Shown here one piece after another: positions 28,757 through 47,517 of a stretch of 64,000 bases of DNA. The notes under the pieces were generated by a model. That model worked only from the letters and a program-made list of their open reading frames with translations, searched no databases and was not told the DNA's origin. The stretch is from Verrucomicrobia bacterium S94 (GTDB lineage: Bacteria; Verrucomicrobiota; Kiritimatiellia; Kiritimatiellales; Pontiellaceae): the NCBI GenBank assembly GCA_004299845.1, contig CP036201.1, positions 2,418,001 through 2,482,000 of the forward strand, in the 5' to 3' direction. The number at the start of each line of letters is the position of its first letter. Position 1 is the first letter of the stretch. The position numbers and the translations under genes are program-made.

Positions 28757-30331
28757 TCAGGTTGCCGATTTCCATGTTCTTCGCAGAGGTTTTGATACTG
28801 ATCGGTTGGCGCGCAGCATGTCGATGAAGTCGCTGACACCGGCCTGCTCTGGGAAACCGAATTTGATCTGCTCGATCTCGGCCAGCCAATTCCGCGTCAC
28901 CTGCTGGACGGGTGCCCGCATGTCCTTAAGTTCTTCTTTCCCTCCGTGCAGGCTGATGTTGTGCTGAGGGCTCGCCAGTCGGGATGTCGAGGTTATCTCC
29001 TGCGGCACAGTTCCTGAGTAAATAGGCCAGTGACGTGCTTTGTAGATAGCCTCGGCCACTCCGGTCGGAATACTCTCTCCAGGAACGACAATCTGCTCGG
29101 TGCTCTCATAATTACCACTCGGAGATGATGTAAACAGAAATGATCGAGACACTCTCTTGGTTATCTTGAGCGGTGAGGGCCATGTGCCGCAAGCGACTCT
29201 GTAATCAGGGATCCCAAGCAACGGATGCATCACCCAGTGTTCGACGACGTCCCACCAGACGGTTACCTCGACGGCTGATACGCCGTATCCTTCCTTGTAG
29301 CCGGACTCGATGTAGTTCACCGCCGGAGAGCCGCCCTCTGAACCTGAATCAACGATACTGCAGAAATAGTCATCGTTCCCGGGGAACAGGTATTTAACCC
29401 ACGCCAGATTCGTCGCCCAATCCGTCGGCCAACTCCTGCACACAAGATCAATAGAGCTGTCATTGTTAACCACATAACTACCCTCAACACTGACCGTCTG
29501 GACAAGCACATTCTTGCCTGATGTATTGCCGTATGAATCTACCTGTATCTCCTGTGTGGTGCCATCAATCAGTTCGTTTTCGATCTCGTAATAAATAACA
29601 ACGCCATCAAGCGCCTGATCATCATTCCGCTTCACCGTAACAGATCCGCCGGACGTCAACACCTCGGTCATATCAACCGACAGCGCGACCTCGGAGTCCG
29701 CATCGAGGAATCTTATGGTTGCCGGGGAGGTGGAGTAATCGAACCGGGTGAAGACATCCATCTGAAGACGCAGGCATTTAAGCAATGCCTCTGCGCAGGT
29801 TAGATCAGTTACTTCGTCCGCCGGCGGCTCGACCGTTAACGCCTCAAGATCAGATGCGATATACTGAATATCGGCGCCCTGACTTATCGCATAATCGAGG
29901 ATTTCTTTTGCCTGATCACCGCATGTCATGCGCTCACCGGAACTGTCCCGGAAAAGAATAACATGAGATCTGTTGTAGGCTGATGCGGAGAATACCGTGC
30001 GCTGGAAAGGGACTGACAGATCAGCCCAGGCATCAACCGCTGTCACAGTATCAAGCGCACGGCCTGACTGCATGGTGCGCTCAGGAGAACCCGATACACG
30101 TCCTCGGAAAAGCATTGTCCAACTATCGTCGTCTGCGTCATCATCACGACCGCGCAGCAGAACAATGTCTCCATGGTCATATCGAAACTCGGCATCCACC
30201 GCCGTTTCGTAGGACCACGTCAGCTCACCGGCCGCCTGACTGGTTACCGTCTGGTTAAGCGAAAGGAACTCAAGCTCACCGATTGGCGTCCACGAATCTC
30301 CCTGTCGAAAGAACTCCAGCTGCACACTCAT
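28757..30331 (-). CDS. Phage tail hub/baseplate-like protein
   Basis: A 524-aa protein at the end of the late operon. Its start (MSVQLEFFRQGDSWTPIGEL), the N-terminal beta domain with LFRGRVSG and the later LTCAEALLKCLRLQMDVFTRFDY region resemble the hub proteins that follow the tape measure in long-tailed phages. Identification rests mainly on position, size and this beta-rich layout. Its ATG overlaps the tape-measure stop by 4 bases. Its stop lies about 45 bases from the left end repeats, so it is the terminal gene of the element. Confidence 0.6.
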   Translation of the reverse strand: MSVQLEFFRQGDSWTPIGELEFLSLNQTVTSQAAGELTWSYETAVDAEFRYDHGDIVLLRGRDDDADDDSWTMLFRGRVSGSPERTMQSGRALDTVTAVDAWADLSVPFQRTVFSASAYNRSHVILFRDSSGERMTCGDQAKEILDYAISQGADIQYIASDLEALTVEPPADEVTDLTCAEALLKCLRLQMDVFTRFDYSTSPATIRFLDADSEVALSVDMTEVLTSGGSVTVKRNDDQALDGVVIYYEIENELIDGTTQEIQVDSYGNTSGKNVLVQTVSVEGSYVVNNDSSIDLVCRSWPTDWATNLAWVKYLFPGNDDYFCSIVDSGSEGGSPAVNYIESGYKEGYGVSAVEVTVWWDVVEHWVMHPLLGIPDYRVACGTWPSPLKITKRVSRSFLFTSSPSGNYESTEQIVVPGESIPTGVAEAIYKARHWPIYSGTVPQEITSTSRLASPQHNISLHGGKEELKDMRAPVQQVTRNWLAEIEQIKFGFPEQAGVSDFIDMLRANRSVSKPLRRTWKSAT

Positions 30332-31977
30332 GACTTAAGACTCCTGATCTGAAACTCAAGCGCGCTGATTCGATCGGCCTGCATCTGCACCTTTGACAAT
30401 AGCTGAGCGGTAGCATCAAGCTGCTGTTCGCCAATAGATATCGACCGTTCCGCCACTCGCTTCGACTGCTGCCAGTCTGCCGATACCTGTTCCATCGATG
30501 TACGCAGCGCAGCGCTTGCCTGCGTCGCTGCGTCCAACGTCTTTCCAGCGGCGGTCTGCATCTCTTCCACGGCCTTTGCTGATGCGTCCGCCGAATCCAC
30601 CGCAGACGCCGAGGCATCGGCTGAATCGCCGAGGGAATCCATCAGTGCAGCCAAATCCTCCTGATTCAGCTCCCAACTCCTGATCACCGCATCAATTTCA
30701 TCGGCACTCATACCACTGGCCAGCATACTCGCCAGTTCATCAACCCTCGCCGCCTGATCACTCTTTGCCAGATTTGAATAGAAGATGTCGGCAAAACTCT
30801 GCATTGAATTCTCAGACAACTCAACGGTAGACGATAACGCTCGCCCTTCTGCCTCTAACCGTTCCGCCCGAACGATCTCCAGGTTCTCCGCTTTACGTTC
30901 GCGGTATTCCCTCGAAAAGAACCCTCCCGATCTTGTTCCGAGTTCCGCATTCGTTCGTGCGGCCGCCTCCTTGTTATCCTGCGACCTGTTAAATATCGCA
31001 TCCTTAACCGCGTTTCCAATAGTTGCTCCGATGGAAGGAGCCTTCGACAGTATAAACTTAGCCGCTTCAACGCCGCCCTCTTTGAGCTTAATTTTAAGCC
31101 AGTCGCCAATCGACTCCGCCAGCACCTTGAGATCCTGCAGTGAGTTTATCTCCTGGACGATGCCCGCGATCAGTTCAGCGAACTCTCGCACCCGTTCCGC
31201 CGCAGCCTTAATGATCTCATGAATTTTCCCGGTTTTGGCACTTTCCTGCCACTCCCCGAATTTGGCAATCACCGCATCAAGGCCGTCTTTCAGACCCAGC
31301 GACTCCGCCAACGTGCGGCCCACTTCCTCGCGGAAATCGCCGACCGCATTTTTCAGCGCCGCAAACCGGCCTGAGAGCGTCTGGGCGCGGGCCTCCAGTA
31401 AACCGCCCCCTTTTTCCGAAAGGGCGGTCATGAGCGAATCCAGGTCCTTAACCTTATCGCCCGTCAAATCAAGGGTTATGCCGTAACGGGAGAACATCGA
31501 GAATTCCCCCTCAAGCGCACGCTGCATCGCCAGAGCCGCACCCTGAAGGTTGCCATCCATCAGGGCAGCAAGATTCTTTGTTGCCTCGGCCACCTGGTCA
31601 ATATTGTCCGACGTCGCGCCGAAGCGCGTCAGCTGCGCGAATGTCTTAAGCCAAACCTCATCACCGATATTGGTCAGCGTCTGATACTGATTGGCCAGCT
31701 CCACCAGCTTCTGCCGATACCCATCCGTATCCTGCCCCATCTGCTTCAGCGCCGAAGACAGATCGGTTTCGCCCAGCTCCTGCGCCGCGAAATCCTTCAC
31801 CGATTTGGTCAGCTGCCAGAACGCCGCCGTCAGCCCGGCCACCGCACCCAGCGCCAGCGCATTGAACGCCCCTTTGATGCGCTGCGTGACACTGTTGACC
31901 ACATCAGGCAAGCTCTTCAATCCGGAGATCGACAGCTTGTCCTTAATATAGATGAGCACTTCCGACGCTTTAGCCAT
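30328..31977 (-). CDS. Tail tape measure protein
   Basis: A 549-aa protein. It has a membrane-active segment near residues 50-75 (AFNALALGAVAGLTAAFWQL), then long helical, alanine-rich coiled coil through to the C-terminus (QADRISALEFQIRSLKS). The segments TLTNIGDEVWLKTFAQLTRFG and MDGNLQGAALAMQRALEGEFS are typical of prophage tape-measure proteins. It is short for the family, implying a short tail if intact. Start ATG 31977 forms a TAATG overlap with the preceding gene and has an AGGGGG ribosome-binding site. Confidence 0.85.
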   Translation of the reverse strand: MAKASEVLIYIKDKLSISGLKSLPDVVNSVTQRIKGAFNALALGAVAGLTAAFWQLTKSVKDFAAQELGETDLSSALKQMGQDTDGYRQKLVELANQYQTLTNIGDEVWLKTFAQLTRFGATSDNIDQVAEATKNLAALMDGNLQGAALAMQRALEGEFSMFSRYGITLDLTGDKVKDLDSLMTALSEKGGGLLEARAQTLSGRFAALKNAVGDFREEVGRTLAESLGLKDGLDAVIAKFGEWQESAKTGKIHEIIKAAAERVREFAELIAGIVQEINSLQDLKVLAESIGDWLKIKLKEGGVEAAKFILSKAPSIGATIGNAVKDAIFNRSQDNKEAAARTNAELGTRSGGFFSREYRERKAENLEIVRAERLEAEGRALSSTVELSENSMQSFADIFYSNLAKSDQAARVDELASMLASGMSADEIDAVIRSWELNQEDLAALMDSLGDSADASASAVDSADASAKAVEEMQTAAGKTLDAATQASAALRTSMEQVSADWQQSKRVAERSISIGEQQLDATAQLLSKVQMQADRISALEFQIRSLKS

Positions 31978-32531
31978 TAGCCGCGATCCCCCTGCATATC
32001 TGTCCACACTCTCAAGTCATCAACCACCTGCTCGCGGATATCCTTATCTGTCGGAAGGACAGACGGGTCCGGGCGATGCACCGCCTGCGTCGTCACGGCG
32101 TACAGGACGCGCGAACCCAGCGTCACCACCCCTTTGCCGCTGCGGCGGTTGATGACCCAACTCGCGCTATCGCCAAATTCGCGCACCCGGCGGCCATGCG
32201 CCGCAGGGTCCACCGGAATAGTCAGATACTTCGCAATGCGCGGACGCACTGTTCCGCCGAAGCGGCGCAGTCCGATCCCCACATGGTCGATATTTACGAC
32301 AGCCTGACGTCCCCGCACCTCGCCCTTGGTTGAGCTCGCCGCCTGCCGGTAAAAATGAAACGGGGAAGTCCCGCGATGCCGCTCCTTTTCCAGTTTAAGG
32401 AAATGCGCCTTCACCACATTCGCGCCGGATGCCGCCATAATTTTCCGGTGCGTTCCTTTTTCATACGCCCGGCGAAGCGCCTCGGTCTTCGGTATCGCGG
32501 AATCTTTGACGGTTACATCAAAATTAATCAC
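31977..32531 (-). CDS. Virion morphogenesis protein, Mu G-like
   Basis: A 184-aa protein resembling the Mu gpG family of virion/tail morphogenesis proteins. It has an N-terminal helix with ASGANVVKAHFLKLEKER, then FHFYRQAASSTKG, a beta segment (VNIDHVGIGLRRFGGTVRP) and a basic middle. It overlaps the F-like gene by 4 bases and the tape measure by 1. In Mu, F and G are next to the portal; here they lie after the tail cassette. Confidence 0.65.
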   Translation of the reverse strand: MINFDVTVKDSAIPKTEALRRAYEKGTHRKIMAASGANVVKAHFLKLEKERHRGTSPFHFYRQAASSTKGEVRGRQAVVNIDHVGIGLRRFGGTVRPRIAKYLTIPVDPAAHGRRVREFGDSASWVINRRSGKGVVTLGSRVLYAVTTQAVHRPDPSVLPTDKDIREQVVDDLRVWTDMQGDRG

Positions 32532-33343
32532 CGCAACGCCTCCATAACAATTCGTCCTGCCTGCACCTTGAACATATCCATCAACGTCTTTTTGAGCCCC
32601 TCCGAAATCCCCGAAGGCATCGCAACCGACACCTCCTCATTAATAAGGTTGCGCTGATCCGGCTGCACCACCGTACTGTGCCTGATCACGCCCAGCCGTT
32701 CGGCCTCATCGCGGCGAACATCGCGGACGCCCATCCCGGAATTATAATCGAACGGCGGATAAGGAACGCCAAAGGCCGACAGCTTTGACCACACCGTATC
32801 ATCCTTCCGGGCAATCATCCGGCCGCCGTAAAACGACCCGCCGGCCGCCGACCAGCGCTGCTCCCAATCGAGGCGAGGATCATTGCGGGCTTCCGTGCGA
32901 ACGAACTCCTGACACGGCCAAAGGTCAAGCAGGTCTGGATCCTGCGCGGCCATATGCTGGCCGTATCCGTGCGCAAATTTTTCCTGCATGTCCGCAATCA
33001 GATTAAGCCGGGCATCGCTTCCAAGATCCTGAACCGACCCCGGCCGCTCCGGCTCATAACCCAGTTTTGCCAGCTCATCGCGCATCTGCAAACGGAACTG
33101 CGCCACATCAACCGCCATTTCTCCGCGCTGCTTCCGCGCCGCCGGCGAGATCATATCCGACAGCATTCGGTCCATCTTCGCCAGATAGCCGGCGTTCGTT
33201 GTGCGCGCCGAAAACAACGCTCTTTCACGAATATCAGCCCCTAACGACGCAAGTTCAGCCGATCCTGCCGAGGTCGGCAGCACCCGCTGCGCGGCCCGAT
33301 ACTCAAGTGCTTCCGCAAAAGGAATTGGCTTATCAAAGATCAT
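32528..33343 (-). CDS. Minor head protein, Mu F-like
   Basis: A 271-aa head morphogenesis protein of the Mu F/SPP1 gp7 kind. The C-terminal part has the characteristic PYPPFDYNSGMGVRDVRRDEAERLG, preceded by a helical N-terminus. Such proteins bind portal and DNA inside the capsid. It overlaps its neighbours at both ends. It lies about 13 kb downstream of the portal gene, which is unusual. Confidence 0.75.
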   Translation of the reverse strand: MIFDKPIPFAEALEYRAAQRVLPTSAGSAELASLGADIRERALFSARTTNAGYLAKMDRMLSDMISPAARKQRGEMAVDVAQFRLQMRDELAKLGYEPERPGSVQDLGSDARLNLIADMQEKFAHGYGQHMAAQDPDLLDLWPCQEFVRTEARNDPRLDWEQRWSAAGGSFYGGRMIARKDDTVWSKLSAFGVPYPPFDYNSGMGVRDVRRDEAERLGVIRHSTVVQPDQRNLINEEVSVAMPSGISEGLKKTLMDMFKVQAGRIVMEALR

Positions 33344-33939
33344 CAGCGCAGTCCCTCTTTAAGCTGGATGACCGGCCTGCCGTTGCGGACCCATGGCGTT
33401 CCCGTCTTCCATTTTCCCGCCGACATCTGCACAGGAGAATGACTCATATCAACAGGACTTGTCTGGTAAGGCATGATATTCTTTAGGAACAGATAGCCGA
33501 TCTGCCTGAACCCCTGCATTATCAGCTGAGAGCAGAATACAGAATCCCGCCCGTGCGCATGATCGGCCCGCAGGGTAAATCCAGAGATAACGCCGCGAAA
33601 ACCGTACTTCGCCTTTGGATCAGCCGCCTTGCGTTCAAAGTAAAGAATGAGTTCAATGTATTTGGCGTCAGACAACGGAATGGCCTCTAAATCGACCTCC
33701 GTACCCGGCGTGTGCAGATCACCTGCAACCCCCTTGCGAACGCCTCGCCGCGATGCGCCCTTAGCCTTGCGATGCCAGCTCTCATAAATGGTGCCGGCAG
33801 GGATGAAATAATGACGACCGTGATGCATGAACGAAAAATCGCGATCAACAATCCATGCAACGTGAGAGTAATCTCCCCAGGTCCGCCACTTGATCAGGCG
33901 CGACACCAAGCTCTTTCCTTTAAAATATGCAATCATCAA
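33343..33939 (-). CDS. Papain-like (permuted NlpC/P60, YiiX-type) peptidase
   Basis: A 198-aa protein. The histidine motif GDYSHVAWIVD lies near residue 25 and the cysteine motif SVFCSQLIMQGFRQIGY near residue 140, followed by SPVDMSHSP. This His-then-Cys order matches permuted papain-fold hydrolases. In a phage late operon the likely role is peptidoglycan or peptide cleavage during entry or lysis. No other clear lysis enzyme is seen in the prophage. No signal peptide is present, unlike its upstream neighbours. Confidence 0.8.
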   Translation of the reverse strand: MMIAYFKGKSLVSRLIKWRTWGDYSHVAWIVDRDFSFMHHGRHYFIPAGTIYESWHRKAKGASRRGVRKGVAGDLHTPGTEVDLEAIPLSDAKYIELILYFERKAADPKAKYGFRGVISGFTLRADHAHGRDSVFCSQLIMQGFRQIGYLFLKNIMPYQTSPVDMSHSPVQMSAGKWKTGTPWVRNGRPVIQLKEGLR

Positions 33940-34103
33940 TCGAACTCCCCCTCAAAACCGATCGTCGGCAGCTCAATTGCCTTGTACGTCATCGGGATAT
34001 CAAAATATTTCCATTTGTATTCAACGGTTAAACGGGCTGAAGAACAGCCGGACAGCAGAGCCGCCAGCAGCGGAAGTAAAAATAGATTTTTTTTATTTTT
34101 CAT
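33936..34103 (-). CDS. Small phage lipoprotein
   Basis: A 55-aa protein starting MKNKKNLFLLPLLAALLSGC. It has a basic n-region, a hydrophobic core and a lipobox LLSGC, so it is a likely lipoprotein of about 36 residues after cleavage. The mature part (SSARLTVEYKWKYFD then IELPTIGFEGEFD) is not recognised. It overlaps the genes on both sides by a few bases. It is the last member of the exported cassette and could be an outer-membrane spanin or an anchor for the cassette. Confidence 0.75.
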   Translation of the reverse strand: MKNKKNLFLLPLLAALLSGCSSARLTVEYKWKYFDIPMTYKAIELPTIGFEGEFD

Positions 34104-34485
34104 TATCTTCTCCAGGTAAGGCCGGCGGCGCGTTGGTTGTGGCGGCCGCGAGGGTGTTGGTCGTGGCTTCGATCAGCGGCTTTGTGGCGGTGTATTTTAT
34201 GCGGAAAAACTCGGCGTCTTTTACCTCCGGCAGATAAATCAATACGCTTTCCGACCGGTTGCTCGCCGCGCCGAAAACCTTCCAGTCGTTGGAAGTCAGG
34301 TTGGTGCATTGTTCGACGTGCCAGGGGTGCAGGCTCTTATCCACCTTAATCTCAACGACTACTTGCGGAATAATCGTAATCTCCGGCTCAGATTGATTTG
34401 CGGCCGCCGCCGGGAGGATGCATGAAAGAGAGGAGAAAAAACCTGCTGCGGCGACCGCAAAAGTGATTGACATAAAACGACTCAT
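34093..34485 (-). CDS. Exported protein with PVC-type FFR domain, late-operon cassette
   Basis: A 130-aa protein with a Sec signal peptide (MSRFMSITFAVAAAGFF...AAAA). The mature part reads PWHVEQCTNLTSNDWKVFG and DAEFFRIKYTATKP. This is the 'E.stnL..W...fFR' pattern common in exported proteins of Verrucomicrobia-like bacteria. The C-terminus is Thr/Ala-rich. A GGGGGAG ribosome-binding site precedes the ATG. It overlaps the end of the upstream gene by 98 bases, probably because of a frameshift in that gene. Confidence 0.75.
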   Translation of the reverse strand: MSRFMSITFAVAAAGFFSSLSCILPAAAANQSEPEITIIPQVVVEIKVDKSLHPWHVEQCTNLTSNDWKVFGAASNRSESVLIYLPEVKDAEFFRIKYTATKPLIEATTNTLAAATTNAPPALPGEDNEK

Positions 34486-35176
34486 TCGGACTCCCCCAAA
34501 CCGTACTCAAACTGCCTGACCCGGCATTAAAAAACAGGTTCGCACTTACGCGGTCATAGAAGCCGCCGTTGGCGGTGGGGATTAGTACAACACTGTCGTC
34601 TATCGTGATGCTGTAAATTACACCAACAAACGATTGCCAGCTACTAGAAAAATCATTGCCAAATAGGACACGCAACCTGTTGAGGTTAGATGTATTAAAA
34701 GAACCATTGATTATAGTCTCGACTAACGTGCTGTCTCGGTAAAACCTCACGGAAGTTCCGTCTACCTCTATGCGATATACGTGTCGTCCTGCGGTGAAAT
34801 AAATATTATTAGACAATTCCCCGGACACACCATTACGCTGTATAAATACTCTACCGACAGCATCGGCAACTATACGATCAGAGGAGCCAGCAGATGTTAG
34901 ATATCTGTTGATGCCATCAAACATGGCCGGATCACATACCATATCAAATTCAATCGTCGTCCACTCTTTTTTAAAACCAAGCTCAACATACTGCCCCGAC
35001 CCATCACTCTGAACGGCCGCATCATAGCCGGCGAACGTCGCAACACACGCGGCATTGGTGAACGGATCGCTGAATCCGCTGAACGTCTCAACCCCGTTGG
35101 TGGAAATACGCATCTGCAGCGTATCCGCAAAGGCGCTGCAGGCCATGAAAAGAATAATCAGCAAGCGAATCATCAT
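34388..35176 (-). CDS. Exported LamG/concanavalin-like protein, late-operon cassette (probably frameshifted near its end)
   Basis: The 262-aa frame starts with a Sec signal peptide (MMIRLLIILFMACSAFADT). The body is a beta-sandwich of the LamG/concanavalin type (GQYVELGFKKEWTTIEFD, VYRIEVDGTSVRFYRDSTLV, TIDDSVVLIPTANGGFYDRV). It reaches NLFFNAGSGS, which in related proteins is followed by a few residues and the stop. Here the frame continues about 100 bases into the next gene. Adding one T in the TTT near 34524 would end it at GLGESE with the stop overlapping the next ATG. A carbohydrate- or surface-binding role is likely. Confidence 0.75.
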   Translation of the reverse strand: MMIRLLIILFMACSAFADTLQMRISTNGVETFSGFSDPFTNAACVATFAGYDAAVQSDGSGQYVELGFKKEWTTIEFDMVCDPAMFDGINRYLTSAGSSDRIVADAVGRVFIQRNGVSGELSNNIYFTAGRHVYRIEVDGTSVRFYRDSTLVETIINGSFNTSNLNRLRVLFGNDFSSSWQSFVGVIYSITIDDSVVLIPTANGGFYDRVSANLFFNAGSGSLSTVWGSPNESFYVNHFCGRRSRFFLLSFMHPPGGGRKSI

Positions 35177-35976
35177 GGCGTGTAGAACTCCCATACGCCG
35201 TTTGTGGCGGTAATCGACATGCCCGACGGCCAGGTGACCGTATCACCGTCAAATGAGTAACCGTTAATCGTGACATCCCGGCTCGTAACACTCAGGCAAC
35301 GGAAAAATGCCGTTTCCGCGTCCGGCGGCTCTATCGTAATCGAATAACGATTAGATGATGCCGTCGGCCAGTCCTCATCAATCACCGTCACCGGCCGCCA
35401 CTCTAAATGACCGTCCGCCGCGCACCACTCAATCTCGGGGCGATAGCTCACCCCGTTGGTGCTGACGGACATCACGATATTTGTGGATGACGCAGCATCG
35501 ATCTGCACCTCATGCGCCGCCACCTCAATGTCAAGACCGATCATATCAAAGCCGCCGAAGTTGATGGTTGCGCTGCTGCTGTTGGTCGTCTGCGCCGTCT
35601 CAAAATGCCAGTTGTTCCCCAGCTGCACGATCGATCCGCGCACGACCTTGGCGGCATCATTGCCGTAATCCTCAATCCTGGTCACCGCGTATTCCGTCGC
35701 ATTGGTGTAATATTCCCGCACGGTATCAAGGCGCGCCGCATGCAGCGAATAGGTCGGCGGAGATACGATATAGTTGTTGGGGACATAATACCCGCCCGAC
35801 AGCAGTTCCGGATTTTCGAAACCGGTAATCACTATATTGGTCGGGATGCGGATTTCATCCTCCCAGTCAAAACCGGGCACCGAAAAAAAACCGCTGCGCG
35901 CAATCCGAAGCCTGGCATCGGTGCCGAAATAGGGAAGATCAACCGGCGTTTGCGTGGAGTTGGTATAGACCGTCAC
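35173..35976 (-). CDS. Late-operon cassette protein without signal peptide, beta-rich
   Basis: A 267-aa protein starting MTVYTNSTQTPVDLPYFG. It is the only member of the nine-gene cassette without a signal peptide. It is rich in Asn/Thr and beta structure. The middle resembles a distal-tail or fibre carbohydrate-binding fold (IDAASSTNIVMSVSTNGVSY). It contains EWCAADGHLEWRPVTVI and ETAFFRCLSV, echoing the FFR element of the 34093 gene. It overlaps both neighbours by 4 bases, so translation is coupled. Function unknown. Confidence 0.7.
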   Translation of the reverse strand: MTVYTNSTQTPVDLPYFGTDARLRIARSGFFSVPGFDWEDEIRIPTNIVITGFENPELLSGGYYVPNNYIVSPPTYSLHAARLDTVREYYTNATEYAVTRIEDYGNDAAKVVRGSIVQLGNNWHFETAQTTNSSSATINFGGFDMIGLDIEVAAHEVQIDAASSTNIVMSVSTNGVSYRPEIEWCAADGHLEWRPVTVIDEDWPTASSNRYSITIEPPDAETAFFRCLSVTSRDVTINGYSFDGDTVTWPSGMSITATNGVWEFYTP

Positions 35977-36392
35977 CGACCACTGATTACCCCATCATGA
36001 TCAATTCCTGTCAGATCATAGCTGTTTATCCCGGCAGTCAGCGGTGGCGACTCCAGCCACGCGCCCGCCCCCTGCAACGCAATCGCGCCGTTTGTCAGCA
36101 GCTCAACATCACCATAGACCGACCAGCCCAGCCAGTCAGCATCCGGACTCATATCAACCGTTTCAACACGCGGAACACCGCCGTCTGTTCCCAGCGCACG
36201 GACAAGCCGCTCCCCATCGCTAACAGCGATCGGTACGGACGCATCGCCGGTTACCGCATAGACGGTGCCGGTAGCGGGAACCGCCATGTGATCAAGCATA
36301 TCTTTTGTCACATACTGCACCTGCAGCGCAGAGGCAGACACGGCAAATAACATGATCGACGCCAGCAGAGCTGGAATGGGGTAATCGCTCAT
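35973..36392 (-). CDS. Exported protein, late-operon cassette
   Basis: A 139-aa protein with a Sec signal peptide (MSDYPIPALLASIMLFAVSA then SALQV). ATG 36392 is chosen because a GGAGGTAGG ribosome-binding site lies upstream. The frame extends to 36482 but that part lacks coding character. The mature part is not recognised; it contains TVYAVTGDASVPIAVSDGER and ends DGVISGR. It lies between the 653-aa protein and the unsigned member and overlaps the latter by 4 bases. Confidence 0.7.
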   Translation of the reverse strand: MSDYPIPALLASIMLFAVSASALQVQYVTKDMLDHMAVPATGTVYAVTGDASVPIAVSDGERLVRALGTDGGVPRVETVDMSPDADWLGWSVYGDVELLTNGAIALQGAGAWLESPPLTAGINSYDLTGIDHDGVISGR

Positions 36393-36486
36393 AATTATCA
36401 ACCTACCTCCGCCGGACCCATTCCGGCGCGAGGGAACCACTCTGCCGACGCCGATCAAATCAAATCGATTAAACATACCCATCTCC

Positions 36487-38448
36487 TCAGAACTCCGTGA
36501 ATCCGCTCAGATCAACCGTTTCCCACTCGTTGGTGTCGCCAATGGCCCGCGCTCCGGCCATAATCGCATCATAGTGCCACACGGCCGAACTCCATGGAGC
36601 ACCTGCTCCGGCAAACGTGGCCGTAGCCGTCAGCGCCAAATCATCGCCGATCTTTATCAGCGTCGGACTGCTTGAATCACCGACAATCTTTGCCCGATAG
36701 AAATCAACATACGTATCCCTGCGCTGGAAATAGAACCCTCCAGGAGGATTGAAAAGATGCGGCTCACTGTAATTCGGATAGTCGGAATTATAACTGCGAC
36801 CATAAAGCCCGATATAATAACTCTCAACAATGCTCAGGCGCTCTAGATGATCGGTAATGACCATCGGATAATTCACCTGATACCTCTTGTTATTAAGTAA
36901 ATTTGTAAACCCCTGATCATACGGAATATAATCAAGCCAGTCTTCCGGCAGACGCTTAACCGGCGTGATCGAGTCCGGCAACGGGGAGTCCAAATGGAAT
37001 ACAATGTAATCAGGACTTAGATTTGTCGGAACAAAATGCCACGTTTCTGGATCAATCTGATATGCCGCCATCATATTGGTAACCGACCAATCCGCATTGG
37101 TGATCACCAGATGATCCACACAGCGCCTGATAACCACATCGTTATCATTATCGACGAAACGTATCTCGAAATCGCCATACACTTTATTAGTATCAGACCA
37201 CCAGCTACTGTCCTGACTCGGATAATAGTGTGCCGATCCAATCACTGTCTGCGGTGTTATCGCCGTCAGAGCGCGGAACTGACCGCTCGGCACCCCATAC
37301 TTATTCGCCAGCGATCCATCGCCGATCTCATTCCACGGGCTCAGGCCGGTAAGGTCCATCTGTCCATACGCCCAGCAGTTCGTGTTGCGAACATAATTGG
37401 TATTCGCGTGATCCTGCAGAGAGAATACCTCGAGCACGGAATCATCCGTACCGTCAAAACCGGCAATCATGGCGGCCATGTTCGTATTAACGTACTCCTT
37501 CACCGACCCGGCAATGTAGGTGTGATTGCTCAGCACCTCGACATACCCTTCATCACCAATCGCAGTTGCCGCCGCCGTCAGCGTCTGCGTCCGCGTCAGA
37601 CTGTCAGACACCAGCGCTATCTTCCCGACGCCATCCACCACACTCACCGCATAGCCGTTCGTCTCGTTAACGTCGAAATAACCATCAAGCGAATAAAACC
37701 GCACCGTCTCCGGCGCATCGCCGACAACAACATCATAACCCGATGTATATGCAAGAGGCGTCAGCTCCGCATAATACGTAATAACGTCAGCATTGTTCGT
37801 AATCGTCGTTTCCGGCGTAACCGTCTGCGCCATCCGCGCCAGCCCGCCGACCGTCGGTTCAAACCACCATTCCATCGGATACCCGCTGGAATCAGCACCT
37901 CCATCCTCAAGCTCGGCAACTTTCGAGCTCAGCAGATCGATCCTCGCCGCATTATCAGCAATCGCTCCCGGAACCTCAGTCGACAGTATAATCTGCCATG
38001 GATCAACAAGATCCAAACCGTCGGACGACGGCGACCATCGAACATCGGCATTAATCCAGGCCAGCACGGTCTGACTCCCGCCTGATACCGCCAACGCATA
38101 GGCGTTATAGGTACCCTCAGGCAGGTTGGCCTGTTCCGGGCTCAGCCTCCAGCTGGCTGTGGTCCCGCTAACCGTCCCGGTGGCCGACAGATAGGCATTG
38201 GTGCCGCTCCAGTCGGTCACCTCGAAAATAACACTCGATCCGTCCAGATCAAATGCATCCCGACCGATGACCGGCCGAAGATCAATCTGCACCGACTCTC
38301 CAGCGAACCACTGCATCGGCAGCCGCCGGTTCGGTCCGTTTCGAACATCCCATTTAACATCGATCGGACGATTGGCAGACCATGCTGCAGCACTCGCTGC
38401 AAGCACCATGCAAATCATTAACCTGCTCACCGTTCTCATATCATTCAT
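36487..38448 (-). CDS. Large exported fibre-like protein, BppU-like N-terminal domain
   Basis: The largest cassette member (653 aa). The signal peptide is MNDMRTVSRLMICMVLAASA followed by AAWSA. An Ig-like domain (about residues 25-150) with FAGESVQIDLRPVIGRDAFD and GTYNAYALAVSGGS recalls the N-terminal domain of baseplate upper proteins. A short trimeric coiled-coil stretch follows (NAARIDLLSSKVAELEDGG, near 175). The rest is a long beta-rich body of unknown fold with many Asn, Asp and Thr. By layout it looks like a receptor-binding or tail-fibre protein, but the signal peptide contradicts cytoplasmic assembly. Confidence 0.7.
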   Translation of the reverse strand: MNDMRTVSRLMICMVLAASAAAWSANRPIDVKWDVRNGPNRRLPMQWFAGESVQIDLRPVIGRDAFDLDGSSVIFEVTDWSGTNAYLSATGTVSGTTASWRLSPEQANLPEGTYNAYALAVSGGSQTVLAWINADVRWSPSSDGLDLVDPWQIILSTEVPGAIADNAARIDLLSSKVAELEDGGADSSGYPMEWWFEPTVGGLARMAQTVTPETTITNNADVITYYAELTPLAYTSGYDVVVGDAPETVRFYSLDGYFDVNETNGYAVSVVDGVGKIALVSDSLTRTQTLTAAATAIGDEGYVEVLSNHTYIAGSVKEYVNTNMAAMIAGFDGTDDSVLEVFSLQDHANTNYVRNTNCWAYGQMDLTGLSPWNEIGDGSLANKYGVPSGQFRALTAITPQTVIGSAHYYPSQDSSWWSDTNKVYGDFEIRFVDNDNDVVIRRCVDHLVITNADWSVTNMMAAYQIDPETWHFVPTNLSPDYIVFHLDSPLPDSITPVKRLPEDWLDYIPYDQGFTNLLNNKRYQVNYPMVITDHLERLSIVESYYIGLYGRSYNSDYPNYSEPHLFNPPGGFYFQRRDTYVDFYRAKIVGDSSSPTLIKIGDDLALTATATFAGAGAPWSSAVWHYDAIMAGARAIGDTNEWETVDLSGFTEF

Positions 38449-39151
38449 AACCAACAGACCCCTGATAAACGACCATATCCAGCGTGGCGGTAACCTTCTC
38501 TGCCGACTCAAAGGTCTCAAATACCACTCGGCCCTTCGAATCCGTACGCTCACAGAGCACGAACTGTGCAGCGGCGGCCGGCTTAACCTTCCGATACGCC
38601 ACCCCTGGACCGCGCGCAGGGTGTGAAAATGCACGTTCCTCCTGAATGGTTATAATATCCGACACATAAGCCGGGATGAAATAACCCGGCGACATCTTAA
38701 AGGTGTAGTATCGTTCAGTACCCGCCGAATATCCATACGGCGTGACATCGAACCGTACAACCACCAGACACCGGCGCTCGCCGACCACGGAACTGAAATC
38801 AATTGTTTTCGGCGTTCCGACCGTACATAACCCCAGATCAAACGATACATCCGGGAAAGACACAATCCCGGCCTCAACATCGAGATCCTCGACGGCCGAA
38901 ATCTGACTCTGAGCATTCGAAAGCGCAATCCCAGTCTCTAATGCAGCATTCAGATCGGCGAGCGTCCAGCCGCTCGATCCAAGACTTCCCGACCAACTCT
39001 CCAGCACATCAAGCCGATCAACCGTGTTTGAATTATCCAAACCAATACCCAGCGCGATGTTAATTTCCGCCGGCGTCAGAACCGTCTCCACCGCCGCATT
39101 CGACCCAAAAGCGACCTGCAGCAGCAATGTAATTATTAAAGGCCTCATCAT
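38441..39151 (-). CDS. Exported cassette protein, paralogue C (two NxxxR repeats)
   Basis: A 236-aa protein with signal peptide MMRPLIITLLLQVAFGSNAA. Two repeats follow (TPAEINIALGIGLDNSN and TLADLNAALETGIALSNAQ), each leading into a short coiled-coil-like VDRLDVLES or ISAVEDL stretch. Next comes a domain starting KTIDFSSVVGERRCLVVVRFD that is shared with the two upstream genes. A GGGAGGGGG ribosome-binding site precedes the double ATG. It overlaps the previous gene by 92 bases and the next by 8. Confidence 0.75.
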   Translation of the reverse strand: MMRPLIITLLLQVAFGSNAAVETVLTPAEINIALGIGLDNSNTVDRLDVLESWSGSLGSSGWTLADLNAALETGIALSNAQSQISAVEDLDVEAGIVSFPDVSFDLGLCTVGTPKTIDFSSVVGERRCLVVVRFDVTPYGYSAGTERYYTFKMSPGYFIPAYVSDIITIQEERAFSHPARGPGVAYRKVKPAAAAQFVLCERTDSKGRVVFETFESAEKVTATLDMVVYQGSVGYE

Positions 39152-39809
39152 TCCCCCTCCCGATAAACCCAATAACCCGTATGTTTCCGGTTCCCCATCG
39201 ATCAGACACTTCGATTACACCGTTTGTGTCAGTTATTGCCGATATGATATAGGGATAACTTCCGCCATCATCTGTCCATAGCGTGGTCTCGGAAATTCCG
39301 CCATAAACAGCACCGACAGTCCCCGGCGTGCGGGCCGACAGATAGCTGTAGGAGAAAGGGCCGCGCGCAACCGGTTCGTACTCAAGCAGCACAAATGCTT
39401 TATTCGATCCGACAACTGAGCTCAAATCAATAGACTGATATGCGTACTCATTGCTACTGACCAGCACATCTGACGATGAGATCAACGAGAACACACCGGC
39501 CGACCCCACCGCACTCTGCGCAAGATCATCATCAATAGCATCAAGCCGCTCAGGCGCATCGGCATTGACAAGCAGATTGTTGAGCGCTGAGTCAATCTGC
39601 TCTGTGTCATATAGGATGTTTGACGCTCCGTCGGTATCAGACATGAACACCTCCAACTTAGTCAGCCGCTCAGGCGCATTCGACACAGCCATCCCGGTCT
39701 GCAGCGCGGAAAGAATATCCGCTGCACTGTAATTAAGGTTTGTCACCGCCCCCAACGAAAGAGAAGAGGAGGCGCAGCACAACAGCATCAACCAAAAGAA
39801 TCGCATCAT
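39060..39809 (-). CDS. Exported cassette protein, paralogue B (two NxxxR repeats)
   Basis: A 249-aa protein with signal peptide MMRFFWLMLLCCASSSLSLG. Its repeats are YSAADILSALQTGMAVSNAP leading into ERLTKLEVF, and YDTEQIDSALNNLLVNADAP leading into ERLDAIDDD. The two copies also share the DNA run AGCCGCTCAGGCGCAT (minus-strand complement), so the duplication is visible at base level. The shared domain starts SIDLSSVVGSNKAFVLLEYE. The C-terminal 92 bases overlap the next gene, which may reflect an indel in a G-run near 39155. An AAGGAG ribosome-binding site is present. Confidence 0.75.
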   Translation of the reverse strand: MMRFFWLMLLCCASSSLSLGAVTNLNYSAADILSALQTGMAVSNAPERLTKLEVFMSDTDGASNILYDTEQIDSALNNLLVNADAPERLDAIDDDLAQSAVGSAGVFSLISSSDVLVSSNEYAYQSIDLSSVVGSNKAFVLLEYEPVARGPFSYSYLSARTPGTVGAVYGGISETTLWTDDGGSYPYIISAITDTNGVIEVSDRWGTGNIRVIGFIGRGNDEAFNNYIAAAGRFWVECGGGDGSDAGGN

Positions 39810-40498
39810 TCATCTCCTTTATTTATGACCGCCGCAAGAAGCCTGAACTCCACGCGATCAGGATCAGCATTCCTGTAATTAACCCACAGCCAGCCGTCCT
39901 CTCCGGTAAACCCGAGAAGTCGGTAATTACCTCCAACCTCAACGCCGGAAGACACCGCGATTCCGTCGTACCAGATCGGTGAGTTAGTCTCTAAGACCGG
40001 CGACACACGGAACGTACCCACATCAGGCGTATCGAGCGGCTTAAGCTGAACAAGCACAATGGCAGAATTATTCGTGCCTACATAACTGCTCAAATCATAT
40101 CTCATCCAGTGAGCGGAATTGGTACTGATAACCGCCGAGCTGATCACCGCATTCGGGTAGATGACCGAATATATATTTGTTGCGGAAACGTTATCTGTAT
40201 AATTCGTCAGAGCCGCCGCACGAGCTGCCGTGTTCGTATTGCGGGCGGCGGAATCAAGAGCGAGGGCAACATAATCATCACTGTAAGCCGTCTCGCTCAA
40301 TCCGGTAAGGCTTCCGTCAATCATAGCATAGAGCGCATCGGTCCGGCTCACACTGTTGCTGTTCTGCAGCAGCCAGTTAAGCGACGGGTTAACATCATCG
40401 GGGCTGAAATCGAAATTAACATTCGTTGTCCCCGACACTTCCTGTGCCTGTACCCGGCACAACAAGACCACCATCAAAATCAATAGTTTCCTCATCAT
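39806..40498 (-). CDS. Exported cassette protein, paralogue A (two NxxxR repeats)
   Basis: A 230-aa protein with signal peptide MMRKLLILMVVLLCRVQAQ. Its repeats are FSPDDVNPSLNWLLQNSNS leading into VSRTDALYA, and YSDDYVALALDSAARNTNTA leading into ARAAALTNY. The shared domain starts MRYDLSSYVGTNNSAIVLVQ. This is the first gene of the exported cassette. Its ATG overlaps the stop of the 163-aa tail-region gene, so it belongs to the same late transcript. Confidence 0.75.
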   Translation of the reverse strand: MMRKLLILMVVLLCRVQAQEVSGTTNVNFDFSPDDVNPSLNWLLQNSNSVSRTDALYAMIDGSLTGLSETAYSDDYVALALDSAARNTNTAARAAALTNYTDNVSATNIYSVIYPNAVISSAVISTNSAHWMRYDLSSYVGTNNSAIVLVQLKPLDTPDVGTFRVSPVLETNSPIWYDGIAVSSGVEVGGNYRLLGFTGEDGWLWVNYRNADPDRVEFRLLAAVINKGDE

Positions 40499-40986
40499 AT
40501 CAGCTCTCCTGAGACTCCTTCCGTCGACACCCATTGCTCCCCGCCGAAGCTGATGGTCACTCCATCCTCGTCAGCAAGCACGGTCTGCGCAGGAATCGGC
40601 TTAATTCCGCCGAAGGTGAGTGTCCAGGCAACCGTGGTAAGCACACCGACAGGGGCTGATGCGGAGAATTCAATGACGCATTCGGGAAGAAGGTATCGGG
40701 TTTCTCCGTCAGACAGCTCCACATCAACATCAGCCTGCAACGGAACCAGCGTGTGCAGCTCGATCAGATACTGCTCAGCATCTTTCTGAGAGTCATGCTC
40801 TGTCTGGATCGTAAACGTCCAGGTGCGGTAGGTATTGCCGCGCGCCTTAGGTTTGGCAAATTCTCCCTGCACAAACGTCAGCACATCCTTGTTCCGCACC
40901 ACCTGCGGAACGAAGTTTGATGGGCCGCCGCGACCGTGATCGCAGAGAACCACCTCTTCTTCGCCGTTGTTTGTCCAGATCTTCAA
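40495..40986 (-). CDS. Tail-region protein of unknown function
   Basis: A 163-aa protein starting MKIWTNNGEEEVVLCDHGRG. It is beta-rich with RTWTFTIQTEHDSQKDAEQY and VGVLTTVAWTLTFGGIKPIP. It lies 5 bases after the tail tube gene and overlaps the first cassette gene. It is in the usual place of tail assembly or chaperone genes, but nothing in the sequence identifies it. Confidence 0.65.
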   Translation of the reverse strand: MKIWTNNGEEEVVLCDHGRGGPSNFVPQVVRNKDVLTFVQGEFAKPKARGNTYRTWTFTIQTEHDSQKDAEQYLIELHTLVPLQADVDVELSDGETRYLLPECVIEFSASAPVGVLTTVAWTLTFGGIKPIPAQTVLADEDGVTISFGGEQWVSTEGVSGELI

Positions 40987-40991
40987 CGCCG

Positions 40992-41930
40992 TTACTCCTC
41001 GATCAATCCGAGGCTGAATACCTGTGAGTTCATCCCGTTAAGGCTAACGAGCGAGAGTTCGCCAACGCGGTTAGACTCCGCACCGAAATTTGAGACGTTG
41101 TTGCTGATCACTGCCTTGCTGAGCGTAAAGGTAGGATCGCCGGCCTGCTCACCGGCCAGCACCAGATCCTTCGCCAGGCCGTACATGCTGCGGCCGCGCC
41201 GTGCGCCGATTCCCTGAACTCCGAGAGCGGTAAGCACCTGTTCCGGAGTAATTCCCTGCGGAACAAAGGTGGCCGTAACGCTCAGGCCGGTGATCTTCTT
41301 GTCGGCAATGCCGTAGGCATCGTTCATCTTGTCGGCAAGCTCCAGATTGAACGACACGACCACACCGCCTTCGGTTTCGATATCATCCCACGGCGCAGAT
41401 TCTCCCCATGCCGCTGCATAATGAAGACGAAGATCTTTGGTCCGATCAAAGCTCGTATCAGTAAATACCTTTGACTGCACAGCGGAAAAGTGATCGGTTC
41501 CCGACCATGCTTCGGTGCAGTCACCCAGACAGGTAAACACCGCCTCTCCGTCATAAAGCGGGAGGTCGGCCCCGAAGGCCAGCCCCGGCATCTGGGTCAG
41601 TGCGCCGTGTTTATAGGTGTACTCCTTCCCGTCAACAGACCAGACCACAATGTCGTCAGGCGTTGCGCCGTAGATCGAGGATCCAAGCACCGGCGTGTGA
41701 TATGGGAAGAGGACGTCGAAATAGGCCTGCGTGGCCATCGGAGCAGGCTTAAAAGATACGGTGTGCAACACACTCGATTGAAACTCATCATATTTTCCCA
41801 TCACCGAGTTCCGGCCCTCAACGGTGGCCACCTCTGCGGTAACGACTACATTCTCTTCGGTGTAAAGGATTGTTGACCCCTTTTTAATTACGGCCGGGCC
41901 TGTGATAATATCTGTTCTGCTGTCAAGCAT
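40992..41930 (-). CDS. Major tail (tube) protein, putative
   Basis: A 312-aa protein starting MLDSRTDIITGPAVIKKGST. It has tube-protein-like features: an N-terminal GPAVIKKGSTILYTEENVVV, a central beta region, and ISVTATFVPQGI-type text (KITGLSVTATFVPQGITPEQ) seen in phage structural proteins. No sheath-like ATPase or long sheath domain is present. It follows the gp37-like gene by 14 bases, the position expected for tube or sheath in Mu-like phages. Size and absence of a separate sheath favour a non-contractile tail. Confidence 0.65.
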   Translation of the reverse strand: MLDSRTDIITGPAVIKKGSTILYTEENVVVTAEVATVEGRNSVMGKYDEFQSSVLHTVSFKPAPMATQAYFDVLFPYHTPVLGSSIYGATPDDIVVWSVDGKEYTYKHGALTQMPGLAFGADLPLYDGEAVFTCLGDCTEAWSGTDHFSAVQSKVFTDTSFDRTKDLRLHYAAAWGESAPWDDIETEGGVVVSFNLELADKMNDAYGIADKKITGLSVTATFVPQGITPEQVLTALGVQGIGARRGRSMYGLAKDLVLAGEQAGDPTFTLSKAVISNNVSNFGAESNRVGELSLVSLNGMNSQVFSLGLIEE

Positions 41931-45763: not shown

Positions 45764-46010
45764 GCCGCTCATTCTCCAGAAAATGAATATCGATGTACGG
45801 TTGCGGTTTGCTCGGTTCGGATAAAAGATGATGCGATTTCCGCACAGCATCACTGATCTTCCCGATAGAACTTGCGGCGACGTTATAAATGCGCCTGCAA
45901 ATCACCGGAACCGTGTTGCAAAGCTCGAAACAAATCACCGGCGAGCAATAAGGTGCATTTGCCGATAAACAGCTCAGACGCAAAATACGGGCGTTTTTAT
46001 AATTAAGCAT
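45747..46010 (-). CDS. Small cysteine-containing late-operon protein, unknown
   Basis: An 87-aa frame starting MLNYKNARILRLSCLSANAP. It has SPVICFELCNTVPVICRRIY with several Cys, then VAASSIGKISDAVRKSHH. It sits exactly in the gap between portal and protease, overlaps both by a few bases, and has a GGGAGGG site upstream, all of which favour a real gene. I do not recognise the family. The frame contains one copy of a 19-bp repeat also found at 50615. Confidence 0.55.
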   Translation of the reverse strand: MLNYKNARILRLSCLSANAPYCSPVICFELCNTVPVICRRIYNVAASSIGKISDAVRKSHHLLSEPSKPQPYIDIHFLENERHERTS

Positions 46011-47517
46011 CACGACCCTCCCTTACCTCACTCATACCGTTGAACAGATTGGCAGACATGGCATCGGAGATAGCATCAGCGGCGGACGGGTCGGTCAGCA
46101 CATCAGCGGCCAGCGCCGGAAGCTCATCAACCTGGAAACGCTCCAGCGCATCCAGCAGCGCATCGTAGTCATCGTGGTCATCGAGAATCTGCTCGAGCCG
46201 CCTGACGACCGGGGACAGATCATCGGCAATCGCAACCGCAAGCGCACTGCGCGTGGCAGCTCGAAGCCCGGCGGCACGGTCATCGACCGCATCCTCATTC
46301 GCCAGCGGCGTCGACGGAAGTGCCTGTCGGCGCAGCGTTGAGCGATTGTATCGCCGCTGCAGATCTGACTCGTCCTGCTCATAACCCATCTCATGCAGGC
46401 CACGGTCTATTTCAAGATCATGTTTTATATCATCGCGCGCACCGGTCTTAATTTTCACCCAAGCCTTCGGCTCGGTGTCGCCGGTGGCGTAATAGATCGC
46501 CCATCGGTCGAGCTGCTCGTTCAACACATCGGTAATATTCTGCGCGTCGTCATCTTCCAGCAGATCGGTCTCATCGGCCTGCAGACTCGCCCCCTGATTA
46601 TCGGCCGAGATGGTGCTCAGATCAGCACCGCGCCAAACGGTGGCAATCGATCTATCCATTCGCTCAACGAGTGCCGGCTGCGGCAGGTTGGTCATTGTTC
46701 CAACGTTTGGAAATTCGACAGAGCCGCTGGCACTGATCACCACGCCGTCGCAATTCCCCAGCGCGGCGGCGGCATCTTCTGCGGCTTTCCAGTTGTCATC
46801 GCCGGGATTCCCGGTCGTCTTCACCACCGGTATCGGGATGCCGTATTTTTCCGACACGAGCAGCCAGTCCTGCAGCGGAAGGTGTTTGTACATATAGGCC
46901 ACCGCGACCGATTCCATCACGCCGCTTCCCGCGTTAACGATCCACTCTCCCGGTTGCAGCTCCTCTCCGGTCAGATCGCCGATACCGTTCAGCAGGCGCA
47001 GTTCGCCGGTGGTGTTGGAGAAATACCAGAGCGGCACAAAGACCAGCTCGGCGGTCAACCCGTTCGGCGTCGGTTTCCAGATGATCTCGTGAGCGGCATA
47101 GCGTTTGCCCTCCGCGTCCATCATGTTGCGTATAGCCAGGGGCAGCCCCCCGCGAATATTACGGTCATCGCACCGGGTAGCCACCAGCTGGTCGTAAAAG
47201 TACTTCAGCACCTCTGCGTGCTGCCTGGCCTTTGGCGAGTCATCATCAGTAATGATCTCGAACCCATGCCGGCTTACCGCCTTCTTCCGCTTCTGTGCGG
47301 CAACCAGACAAACATCGTCGGTGCGCTCGATCGCATCCCAAAGCTTTGCCGCTTCTTTAAGCCGGCCGGCGTTGAACTCCTCATGCACCCGGACAATATA
47401 ACCAGGCTCCACCCGCCGAAGCGGATTAAAGCGGCTCATCCGTTCAATCGCCACGCGCCGGGCATCAACCGAACTCCCGGGCTTCCGTTTAAATCGTTTT
47501 GCAAATTTCTTAATCAT
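46003..47517 (-). CDS. Portal protein (Mu gp29-like, DUF935)
   Basis: A 504-aa portal. Characteristic segments include MMDAEGKRYAAHEIIWKPTP, LQPGEWIVNAGSGVMESVAV, LPLQDWLLVSEKYGIPIPVVKTTG and TVWRGADLSTISADNQGASLQ. These are conserved in Mu-type portals. Portal forms the dodecameric ring at one capsid vertex. It shares a base with the terminase stop and follows it directly. Confidence 0.93.
   Translation of the reverse strand: MIKKFAKRFKRKPGSSVDARRVAIERMSRFNPLRRVEPGYIVRVHEEFNAGRLKEAAKLWDAIERTDDVCLVAAQKRKKAVSRHGFEIITDDDSPKARQHAEVLKYFYDQLVATRCDDRNIRGGLPLAIRNMMDAEGKRYAAHEIIWKPTPNGLTAELVFVPLWYFSNTTGELRLLNGIGDLTGEELQPGEWIVNAGSGVMESVAVAYMYKHLPLQDWLLVSEKYGIPIPVVKTTGNPGDDNWKAAEDAAAALGNCDGVVISASGSVEFPNVGTMTNLPQPALVERMDRSIATVWRGADLSTISADNQGASLQADETDLLEDDDAQNITDVLNEQLDRWAIYYATGDTEPKAWVKIKTGARDDIKHDLEIDRGLHEMGYEQDESDLQRRYNRSTLRRQALPSTPLANEDAVDDRAAGLRAATRSALAVAIADDLSPVVRRLEQILDDHDDYDALLDALERFQVDELPALAADVLTDPSAADAISDAMSANLFNGMSEVREGRDA

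What the first reader, a model, noticed from the sequence alone, without database searches (positions are those of the whole stretch)
33936..40498. Nine-gene cassette of mostly exported proteins inside a phage late operon
Seven consecutive-cassette proteins carry good Sec signal peptides and an eighth is a lipoprotein; only the 35173-35976 member lacks export. All are joined to the tail genes by 4-base to 100-base overlaps in one transcript. Tail fibres and baseplate parts normally assemble in the cytoplasm, and tail fibre genes are otherwise missing from this phage. The proteins show BppU-like, coiled-coil, LamG-like and FFR-type features expected of receptor-binding parts. One possibility is that they are exported, assembled at the cell surface and picked up at or after lysis; another is that they coat the host or cell debris. 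This may be an undescribed way of making or using adhesion proteins.
Basis: partly seen in the sequence, partly recalled or inferred. Interest (0 to 1): 0.85.

Follow-up and report, generated by a model that had tools for sequence, protein, structure and literature searches.

The report
Phage tail fibres carrying export signals
A virus dormant in a little-studied bacterium encodes its host-gripping tail parts with "send me out of the cell" tags, and dozens of related viruses do the same, which does not fit the textbook picture that such parts are finished inside the cell.

Summary
Between the tail-tube genes and the minor-head, tape-measure and tip genes of a Mu-like prophage lie nine short-overlap genes. 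Six have clear Sec signal peptides, one a probable one (g5, start uncertain), and one is a lipoprotein. None of 16 other phage genes in the operon scores. The exception, g6 (35173-35976), looks like the frame-shifted continuation of g5.

Relatives show a rule, not an oddity. The first mature domain of g4 folds like the baseplate adaptor BppU of phage TP901-1. Its family has an export signal directly before it in 27 of 35 non-redundant members; five of the six clear exceptions are one gut clade. A second, cytoplasmic adaptor family lacks signals (28 of 29). Where that adaptor is a separate gene, the next gene is a fibre with a signal peptide in 13-14 of 17 cases; elsewhere adaptor and fibre are one cytoplasmic chain. 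Exported members carry known tail modules (Collar, Phage_fiber_2, BNR, collagen, LamG). g4 also ends in a trypsin-like domain.

Most likely these are tail adhesins exported by Sec that join the tail outside the cytoplasm, probably at lysis. Export is well supported by sequence; attachment is inferred. No precedent was found in the library searched.

The parts
39806..40498 (-). g1: Sec signal peptide (MMRKLLILMVVLLCRVQA|QE), short helical/coiled stretch, C-terminal beta domain
   Evidence: homologues L223_10 (E 4.6e-5) and L084_13 have signal peptides too
39060..39809 (-). g2: Sec signal peptide, coiled coil, C-terminal beta domain; apparent paralogue of g1 and g3
   Evidence: AF2 model poor, pLDDT 42
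38441..39151 (-). g3: Sec signal peptide (MMRPLIITLLLQVAFGSNA), same architecture as g1 and g2; overlaps g2 by 92 bases
36487..38448 (-). g4: signal peptide (..RLMICMVLAASAAA), BppU-fold beta-sandwich (residues 26-137), linker, trypsin-like C-terminal domain (about 332-653; His in GSAHYYP, Asp in PDYIVFHL, Ser in GDSSSP)
   Evidence: AF2; Foldseek top hits 4v96, 6v8i, 3uh8 and viral BppU proteins; domain-family searches; PDB profile search
35973..36482 (-). g5: N-terminal half of a fibre-like protein, probably exported (start 36482, 36392 ATG or a TTG)
35173..35976 (-). g6: no signal peptide, GTG start, -1 frame relative to g5; probably the continuation of g5 after a frameshift near GATGGGGTAATC
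   Evidence: frame translations; no intact homologue found, so inferred
34388..35176 (-). g7: signal peptide (MMIRLLIILFMACSAFA|D), LamG-like by eye, with a 'GGFYDRVSANLFFNAGSG' ending
   Evidence: no profile match and no match in known phages
34093..34485 (-). g8: small secreted protein (signal ..LPAAA|ANQSE), function unknown
33936..34103 (-). g9: 55-aa lipoprotein (LLSG|C); weak match to Rz-like spanin profiles (E 0.0016), may belong to lysis rather than adhesion
40495..40986 (-). tail2: small cytoplasmic tail protein next to the tube; the gene on the upstream side of the cassette
40992..41930 (-). tail tube protein (by position and family), no signal peptide
32528..33343 (-). hmor: minor head/morphogenesis protein used as the anchor to find relatives; flanks the cassette downstream
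28757..32007 (-). tape measure (30328-32007) and tail-tip protein (28757-30331), no signal peptides
46003..47517 (-). Mu-type portal protein (Pfam Portal_Mu E 1e-55), places the prophage among transposable phages

Best explanation
The cassette encodes the adhesion apparatus of a Mu-like, long-tailed phage with a probably non-contractile tail, and these proteins are sent through the Sec machinery out of the cytoplasm. Tube, tape measure, tip, head and (in relatives) a baseplate adaptor are made in the cytoplasm. Fibre proteins are made with cleavable signal peptides, mature in the periplasm (or on the surface, for lipidated members), and attach to the finished tail when virions and periplasm mix, most simply when the lysis proteins destroy the inner membrane and wall. 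In g4 the first mature domain has the BppU fold, which in phage TP901-1 is the piece that docks on the tail tip; its far end carries a trypsin-like domain that could cut a surface protein during adsorption. Shown by sequence: signal peptides, their conservation, fibre and baseplate domains, position in the late operon. Inferred: actual export and cleavage, presence in virions, timing and site of attachment, protease activity.
For: Signal peptides in 7 (8 with g5) of 9 cassette genes against 0 of 16 other phage genes. In relatives with the tube-to-hmor order, 20 of 41 inserted genes of 150 aa or more score against 3 of 188 core genes, Fisher p about 1e-14. The g4 N-domain family, defined without its signal, has a signal peptide immediately before it in 27 of 35 non-redundant members after correcting two calls by hand. 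g4 itself folds as BppU at its N-terminus: 4v96, 6v8i and 3uh8 are among the best PDB matches, and BppU or baseplate proteins among the viral ones. Exported relatives hold Pfam Collar (2e-19), Phage_fiber_2, BNR_2, Laminin_G_3, collagen and BppU_N (1.4e-4), plus many PHROG tail-fibre families. The g4 relative L223_12, on a viral contig, has a signal peptide, the BppU-like domain and tail-fibre-type repeats. A cytoplasmic adaptor family (28 of 29 signal-negative) is followed directly by a signal-peptide fibre in 13-14 of 17 split cases, while seven relatives hold adaptor and fibre in one cytoplasmic chain. Tail proteins of two proteobacterial transposable phages score none. T4 long tail fibres attach to otherwise complete fibreless particles, a reaction studied in vitro (PMC3004832), so late joining is physically plausible.
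Against: No virion proteomics or localisation data. BppU and fibres of known phages are made and attached in the cytoplasm, so a signal peptide on a docking domain is a topological paradox. Exported fibres are not richer in cysteine than core proteins (0.72% against 0.69%), so disulfide formation does not explain the export. Five members from one gut clade, and at least one other, keep the same domain without a signal. g8 and g9 have no fibre-like features.
Confidence: 0.62

Rival explanations
1. The proteins are exported but never join the virion: they stay in the periplasm or on the surface of the producing cell, or are released, to block re-adsorption to the host and its debris, to exclude other phages or to process the cell surface.
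For: Signal peptides and a lipoprotein; enzyme-like domains in exported members (trypsin-like, BNR, FGE-sulfatase/C-type-lectin-like by eye); lipidated exported members in relatives.
Against: Position inside the tail module rather than at its edge; a virion-docking BppU fold at the mature N-terminus; the adaptor-fibre gene pair and its single-chain cytoplasmic counterpart; no alternative fibre gene elsewhere in this prophage was recognised.
Confidence: 0.25
2. The hydrophobic N-termini are not cleaved but serve as membrane anchors, so that fibres wait on the inner membrane and virions finish assembly there.
For: In many Verrucomicrobiota relatives a DUF2190-like head protein has an uncleaved-looking N-terminal transmembrane segment followed by basic residues, so some structural proteins of these phages may be membrane-bound.
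Against: Cassette N-termini mostly have typical small-residue cleavage motifs and the folded domain begins within a few residues of them.
Confidence: 0.08
3. Prediction artefact: hydrophobic N-termini arising from wrong start codons or chance.
For: g5 depends on the start chosen; the scorer is home-made and its cut-off was set during the work.
Against: Chance of about 3e-8 within the window, family-wide conservation, near absence in core genes.
Confidence: 0.04

Closest known systems
BppU, baseplate upper protein of Lactococcus phage TP901-1 (PDB 4v96, 3uh8)
   Same: Fold of the first mature domain of g4; an adaptor that holds receptor-binding proteins at the tail end
   Different: g4 has a signal peptide, is fused to a trypsin-like domain and lies before the tape-measure gene; TP901-1 BppU has no signal (own knowledge) and its gene follows the tape measure
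Tail collar and tail-fibre proteins (Pfam Collar, Phage_fiber_2)
   Same: Domains or repeats found in exported members of the same kind of cassette in relatives (L096_9, L042_12, L223_12)
   Different: Known members (T4 gp12, Mu-like fibres) are cytoplasmic; tail genes of MP29 and SuMu have no signal peptide
Coat proteins of filamentous phages such as M13 (own knowledge)
   Same: Virion proteins made with signal peptides and added outside the cytoplasm
   Different: Inovirus extrusion at the membrane; here a tailed phage whose head and tail are cytoplasmic
Exported phage morons (Lom, Bor, Cor; own knowledge)
   Same: Phage-encoded exported surface proteins
   Different: Those sit outside the core structural gene order and carry no virion-docking or fibre modules

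Membership tests
BppU_N (Pfam PF10651) baseplate upper proteins | match to the Pfam profile | tested here: not met
   g4 has no hit at E<=1; one of 81 relatives hits at 1.4e-4
BppU_N (Pfam PF10651) baseplate upper proteins | BppU N-terminal beta-sandwich fold | tested here: met
   4v96, 6v8i and 3uh8 at E 1e-5 to 1e-3, prob 1.00; residues 26-137 at pLDDT about 70-90
BppU_N (Pfam PF10651) baseplate upper proteins | part of the virion baseplate | not testable with these tools
   needs virion proteomics or cryo-EM
Chymotrypsin/trypsin-like serine peptidases (S1) | His/Asp/Ser triad in the right order | tested here: met
   H, D and S invariant in the 5-member alignment A4 and aligned to the triad of factor Xa
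Chymotrypsin/trypsin-like serine peptidases (S1) | match to a trypsin profile or structure | tested here: inconclusive
   no Pfam Trypsin hit; PDB profile search E 0.003 at best, hits shown are S1 proteases; weak thrombin/chymase/granzyme fold hits; g4 has GDSSSP for GDSGGP
Chymotrypsin/trypsin-like serine peptidases (S1) | proteolytic activity | not testable with these tools
   needs a purified protein
Sec-exported proteins | n-, h- and c-region signal peptide | tested here: met
   (heuristic scorer with controls; SignalP not available)
Sec-exported proteins | cleavage and location outside the cytoplasm | not testable with these tools
   needs fractionation or N-terminal sequencing
Lysogenic-conversion moron | own promoter and terminator, separable from the structural operon | tested here: inconclusive
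   genes overlap by 4-98 bases inside the tail operon; promoter-like sites no more than in shuffles (10 against 10.7)
Transposable (Mu-like) phage | Mu-type portal, protease, MuB-like ATPase | tested here: met
   Portal_Mu 1e-55, Mu-like_Pro 3e-16, TniB/AAA_22

The most novel reading that the evidence does not exclude
Tailed phages of Kiritimatiellia and other bacteria of the Verrucomicrobiota phylum use two-compartment virion assembly: head, tail tube and a docking adaptor are built in the cytoplasm, while fibres (and in many relatives a small head-side protein with a signal peptide) are built outside the inner membrane and added at or after lysis.
Probability: 0.5. Interest if true: 0.9.

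Novelty: new variant of a known kind. Interest (0 to 1): 0.8.

Why it matters
If the fibres really join the virion from outside, tailed-phage assembly would not be purely cytoplasmic, adhesins could be modified or screened in the periplasm, and phages from neighbouring cells could in principle exchange fibres at lysis. It also gives a simple genomic signature (a signal peptide directly before a baseplate or fibre domain) for finding receptor-binding proteins in phages of the poorly known PVC bacteria, where profile databases fail (g1-g8 have no convincing Pfam or PHROG match).

Tried and rejected
Close relatives of g4 or the tail tube in IMG/VR by single protein: none. g7 against annotated phages: none. 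AF2 of g2: too poor to use (pLDDT 42), so no fold search was run on it. The C-terminal half of g4 is poorly modelled, so the protease call rests on sequence, with weak fold support. Disulfide rationale for export: no cysteine enrichment. Profile-profile link between the exported and the cytoplasmic adaptor families: not significant (prob 8.8), so they are treated as separate families. Single origin of the adaptor split: the tree is too weak to say. Collar-domain search of 334 class genomes found 17 carriers, but signals were not tallied there. Intact g5+g6 homologue: not found. Ten literature searches found no report of signal peptides on tailed-phage fibres, but subscription papers are mostly missing from that library. 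The signal-peptide cut-off was adjusted while working (4.7, 4.3, 3.7 or 3.6 in different counts) and the anchor gene was chosen after seeing the first relatives, so the family-wide counts are descriptive rather than pre-planned tests.
Full report
WHAT IS THERE. The window lies in a single-contig genome of 4.1 Mb. A genome of the same class (G165) is the MAG titled Kiritimatiellaeota bacterium, as matching contig lengths show, so the host belongs to the Kiritimatiellia. The prophage is Mu-like: Mu portal, Mu-like protease and a MuB-like ATPase, with tube, tape measure and tip but no recognised sheath, so probably a non-contractile tail. On the minus strand the late operon runs capsid, adaptor, tube, tail2, then nine genes g1-g9, then a small protein, minor head protein (hmor), k32, tape measure, tip.

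CHECK OF THE OBSERVATION. A simple scorer for signal peptides (basic n-region, hydrophobic core, small-residue cleavage site, lipobox) calls g1, g2, g3, g4, g7 and g8 as Sec type I and g9 as a lipoprotein; g5 is probable by eye, g6 negative. None of 16 other phage genes of the window and none of 13 host proteins passes; ORFs of shuffled DNA pass at 5%. g6 is not a clean exception: it starts with GTG in the -1 frame at the end of g5, and the junction reads '..SYDLTGIDHDG|NQWSVTVYTNST..' across a GGGG. I read g5+g6 as one exported fibre broken by a frameshift, real or from sequencing; this is inference.

RELATIVES. Portal homologues were found in 28 of 388 genomes of the phylum and hmor homologues in 62 of 346 of the class, the window's own genome included in both. 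With 79 loci from these, 80 named genome contigs and 80 viral contigs, the order tube - tail2 - [cassette] - hmor - k32 - tape measure - tip recurs. In eleven such loci of the class, 20 of 41 inserted genes of at least 150 aa carry a signal, against 3 of 188 core genes; the scorer misses some because of wrong starts, for example in L108. Multi-gene exported cassettes are common (L101: four in a row; L371: six in a row).

THREE LINES ON WHAT THEY ARE. (1) Domains: of 81 exported proteins, some match Collar (2e-19), Phage_fiber_2, BNR_2, Laminin_G_3, BppU_N and collagen, and many PHROG tail-fibre families. (2) The g4 N-domain: a profile built from mature N-termini finds 35 non-redundant members. 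Counting by script and then correcting two by hand (L126_3 is a false call, L118_15 a missed one), 27 have a signal immediately before the domain, 6 have none (five of them one gut clade, plus L124_21) and 2 are unclear. The AF2 model of g4 is confident only for residues 26-137; its best PDB matches include TP901-1 BppU and the 80alpha baseplate, and viral matches include BppU and baseplate components. (3) Gene split: a second adaptor family has no signal (28 of 29; the one positive is an internal-start artefact in my judgement) and in seven relatives is fused to its fibre in one cytoplasmic chain. In 17 relatives it is a separate gene; the next gene then has a signal peptide in 13 cases, a weak one in a 14th, and none or no suitable gene in three. 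Several pairs overlap by 4 bases. The route of the fibre seems to change while its place in the operon does not.

PROTEASE. The C-terminal 320 residues of g4 share invariant His, Asp and Gly-Asp-Ser with relatives, two of them on genomes titled Verrucomicrobia and two on viral contigs. A profile of this region finds S1 serine proteases in the PDB (E 0.003 at best), with the triad in register; thrombin, chymase and granzyme appear weakly in the fold search. No Pfam trypsin match, so I claim resemblance, not membership. One homologue (L041_13) lacks a signal, so the module also occurs in a protein made without export.

CONTROLS AND NEGATIVES. Tail proteins of Pseudomonas phage MP29 and Haemophilus phage SuMu have no signals. 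Cysteine is not enriched. Of about 65 places of the N-domain family in 334 genomes, roughly 30 share a contig with hmor or portal. Twenty of the rest were fetched: four show genes of this phage group (L368, L373, L376, L381), and one (L372) has portal and head proteins of other families, so the exported cassette is not confined to transposable phages. Eight genes tested beside L362, L363 and L371 gave no PHROG match, so the phage nature of those three is unproven.

MECHANISM AND LIMITS. Best reading: Sec-exported adhesins that meet the tail when the envelope is breached. Late attachment of fibres has a precedent in T4 (PMC3004832). The rival, exported proteins that never join the virion, remains open at about one in four. 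Ten full-text searches found no description of the phenomenon; that library lacks most subscription journals.

Noticed in passing
window 35960-36010: g5 and g6 are adjacent reading frames that read as one fibre protein across a GGGG; probable frameshift (mutation, sequencing error or programmed).
   Followed up: partly
window 36490-37455 (g4 C-terminus): Trypsin-like domain with conserved His/Asp/Ser on an exported phage tail protein; relatives on genomes titled Verrucomicrobia and on viral contigs.
   Followed up: partly
L084:5504-5893, L096:2060-2452, L101:3156-3536, L108:15315-15728, L038:13024-13356 (between capsid and head-tail adaptor): Many Kiritimatiellia relatives have a small (about 110-225 aa) signal-peptide protein directly after the major capsid gene, possibly an exported head decoration; absent in the window phage.
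   Followed up: partly
L042:2280-2780, and the 'deco' genes of L041, L044, L049, L194, L232 and others: DUF2190-like head proteins of many Verrucomicrobiota relatives start with a transmembrane segment followed by basic residues, as if tethered to the inner membrane with the domain in the cytoplasm.
   Followed up: partly
L226:4190-5629, L224:5059-6456: Exported cassette proteins with an FGE-sulfatase/C-type-lectin-like domain (read by eye), the type often diversified by retroelements; no reverse transcriptase was looked for.
   Followed up: no
L090:9344-11242: Exported fibre with collagen-like repeats and BNR (sialidase-type) repeats.
   Followed up: no
window 33343-33936: Small protein with a PHROG match of 1e-10 to a family named enoyl-CoA hydratase-like (probably misnamed); by eye it resembles NlpC/P60-type cysteine peptidases and might be a lysis enzyme.
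   Followed up: no
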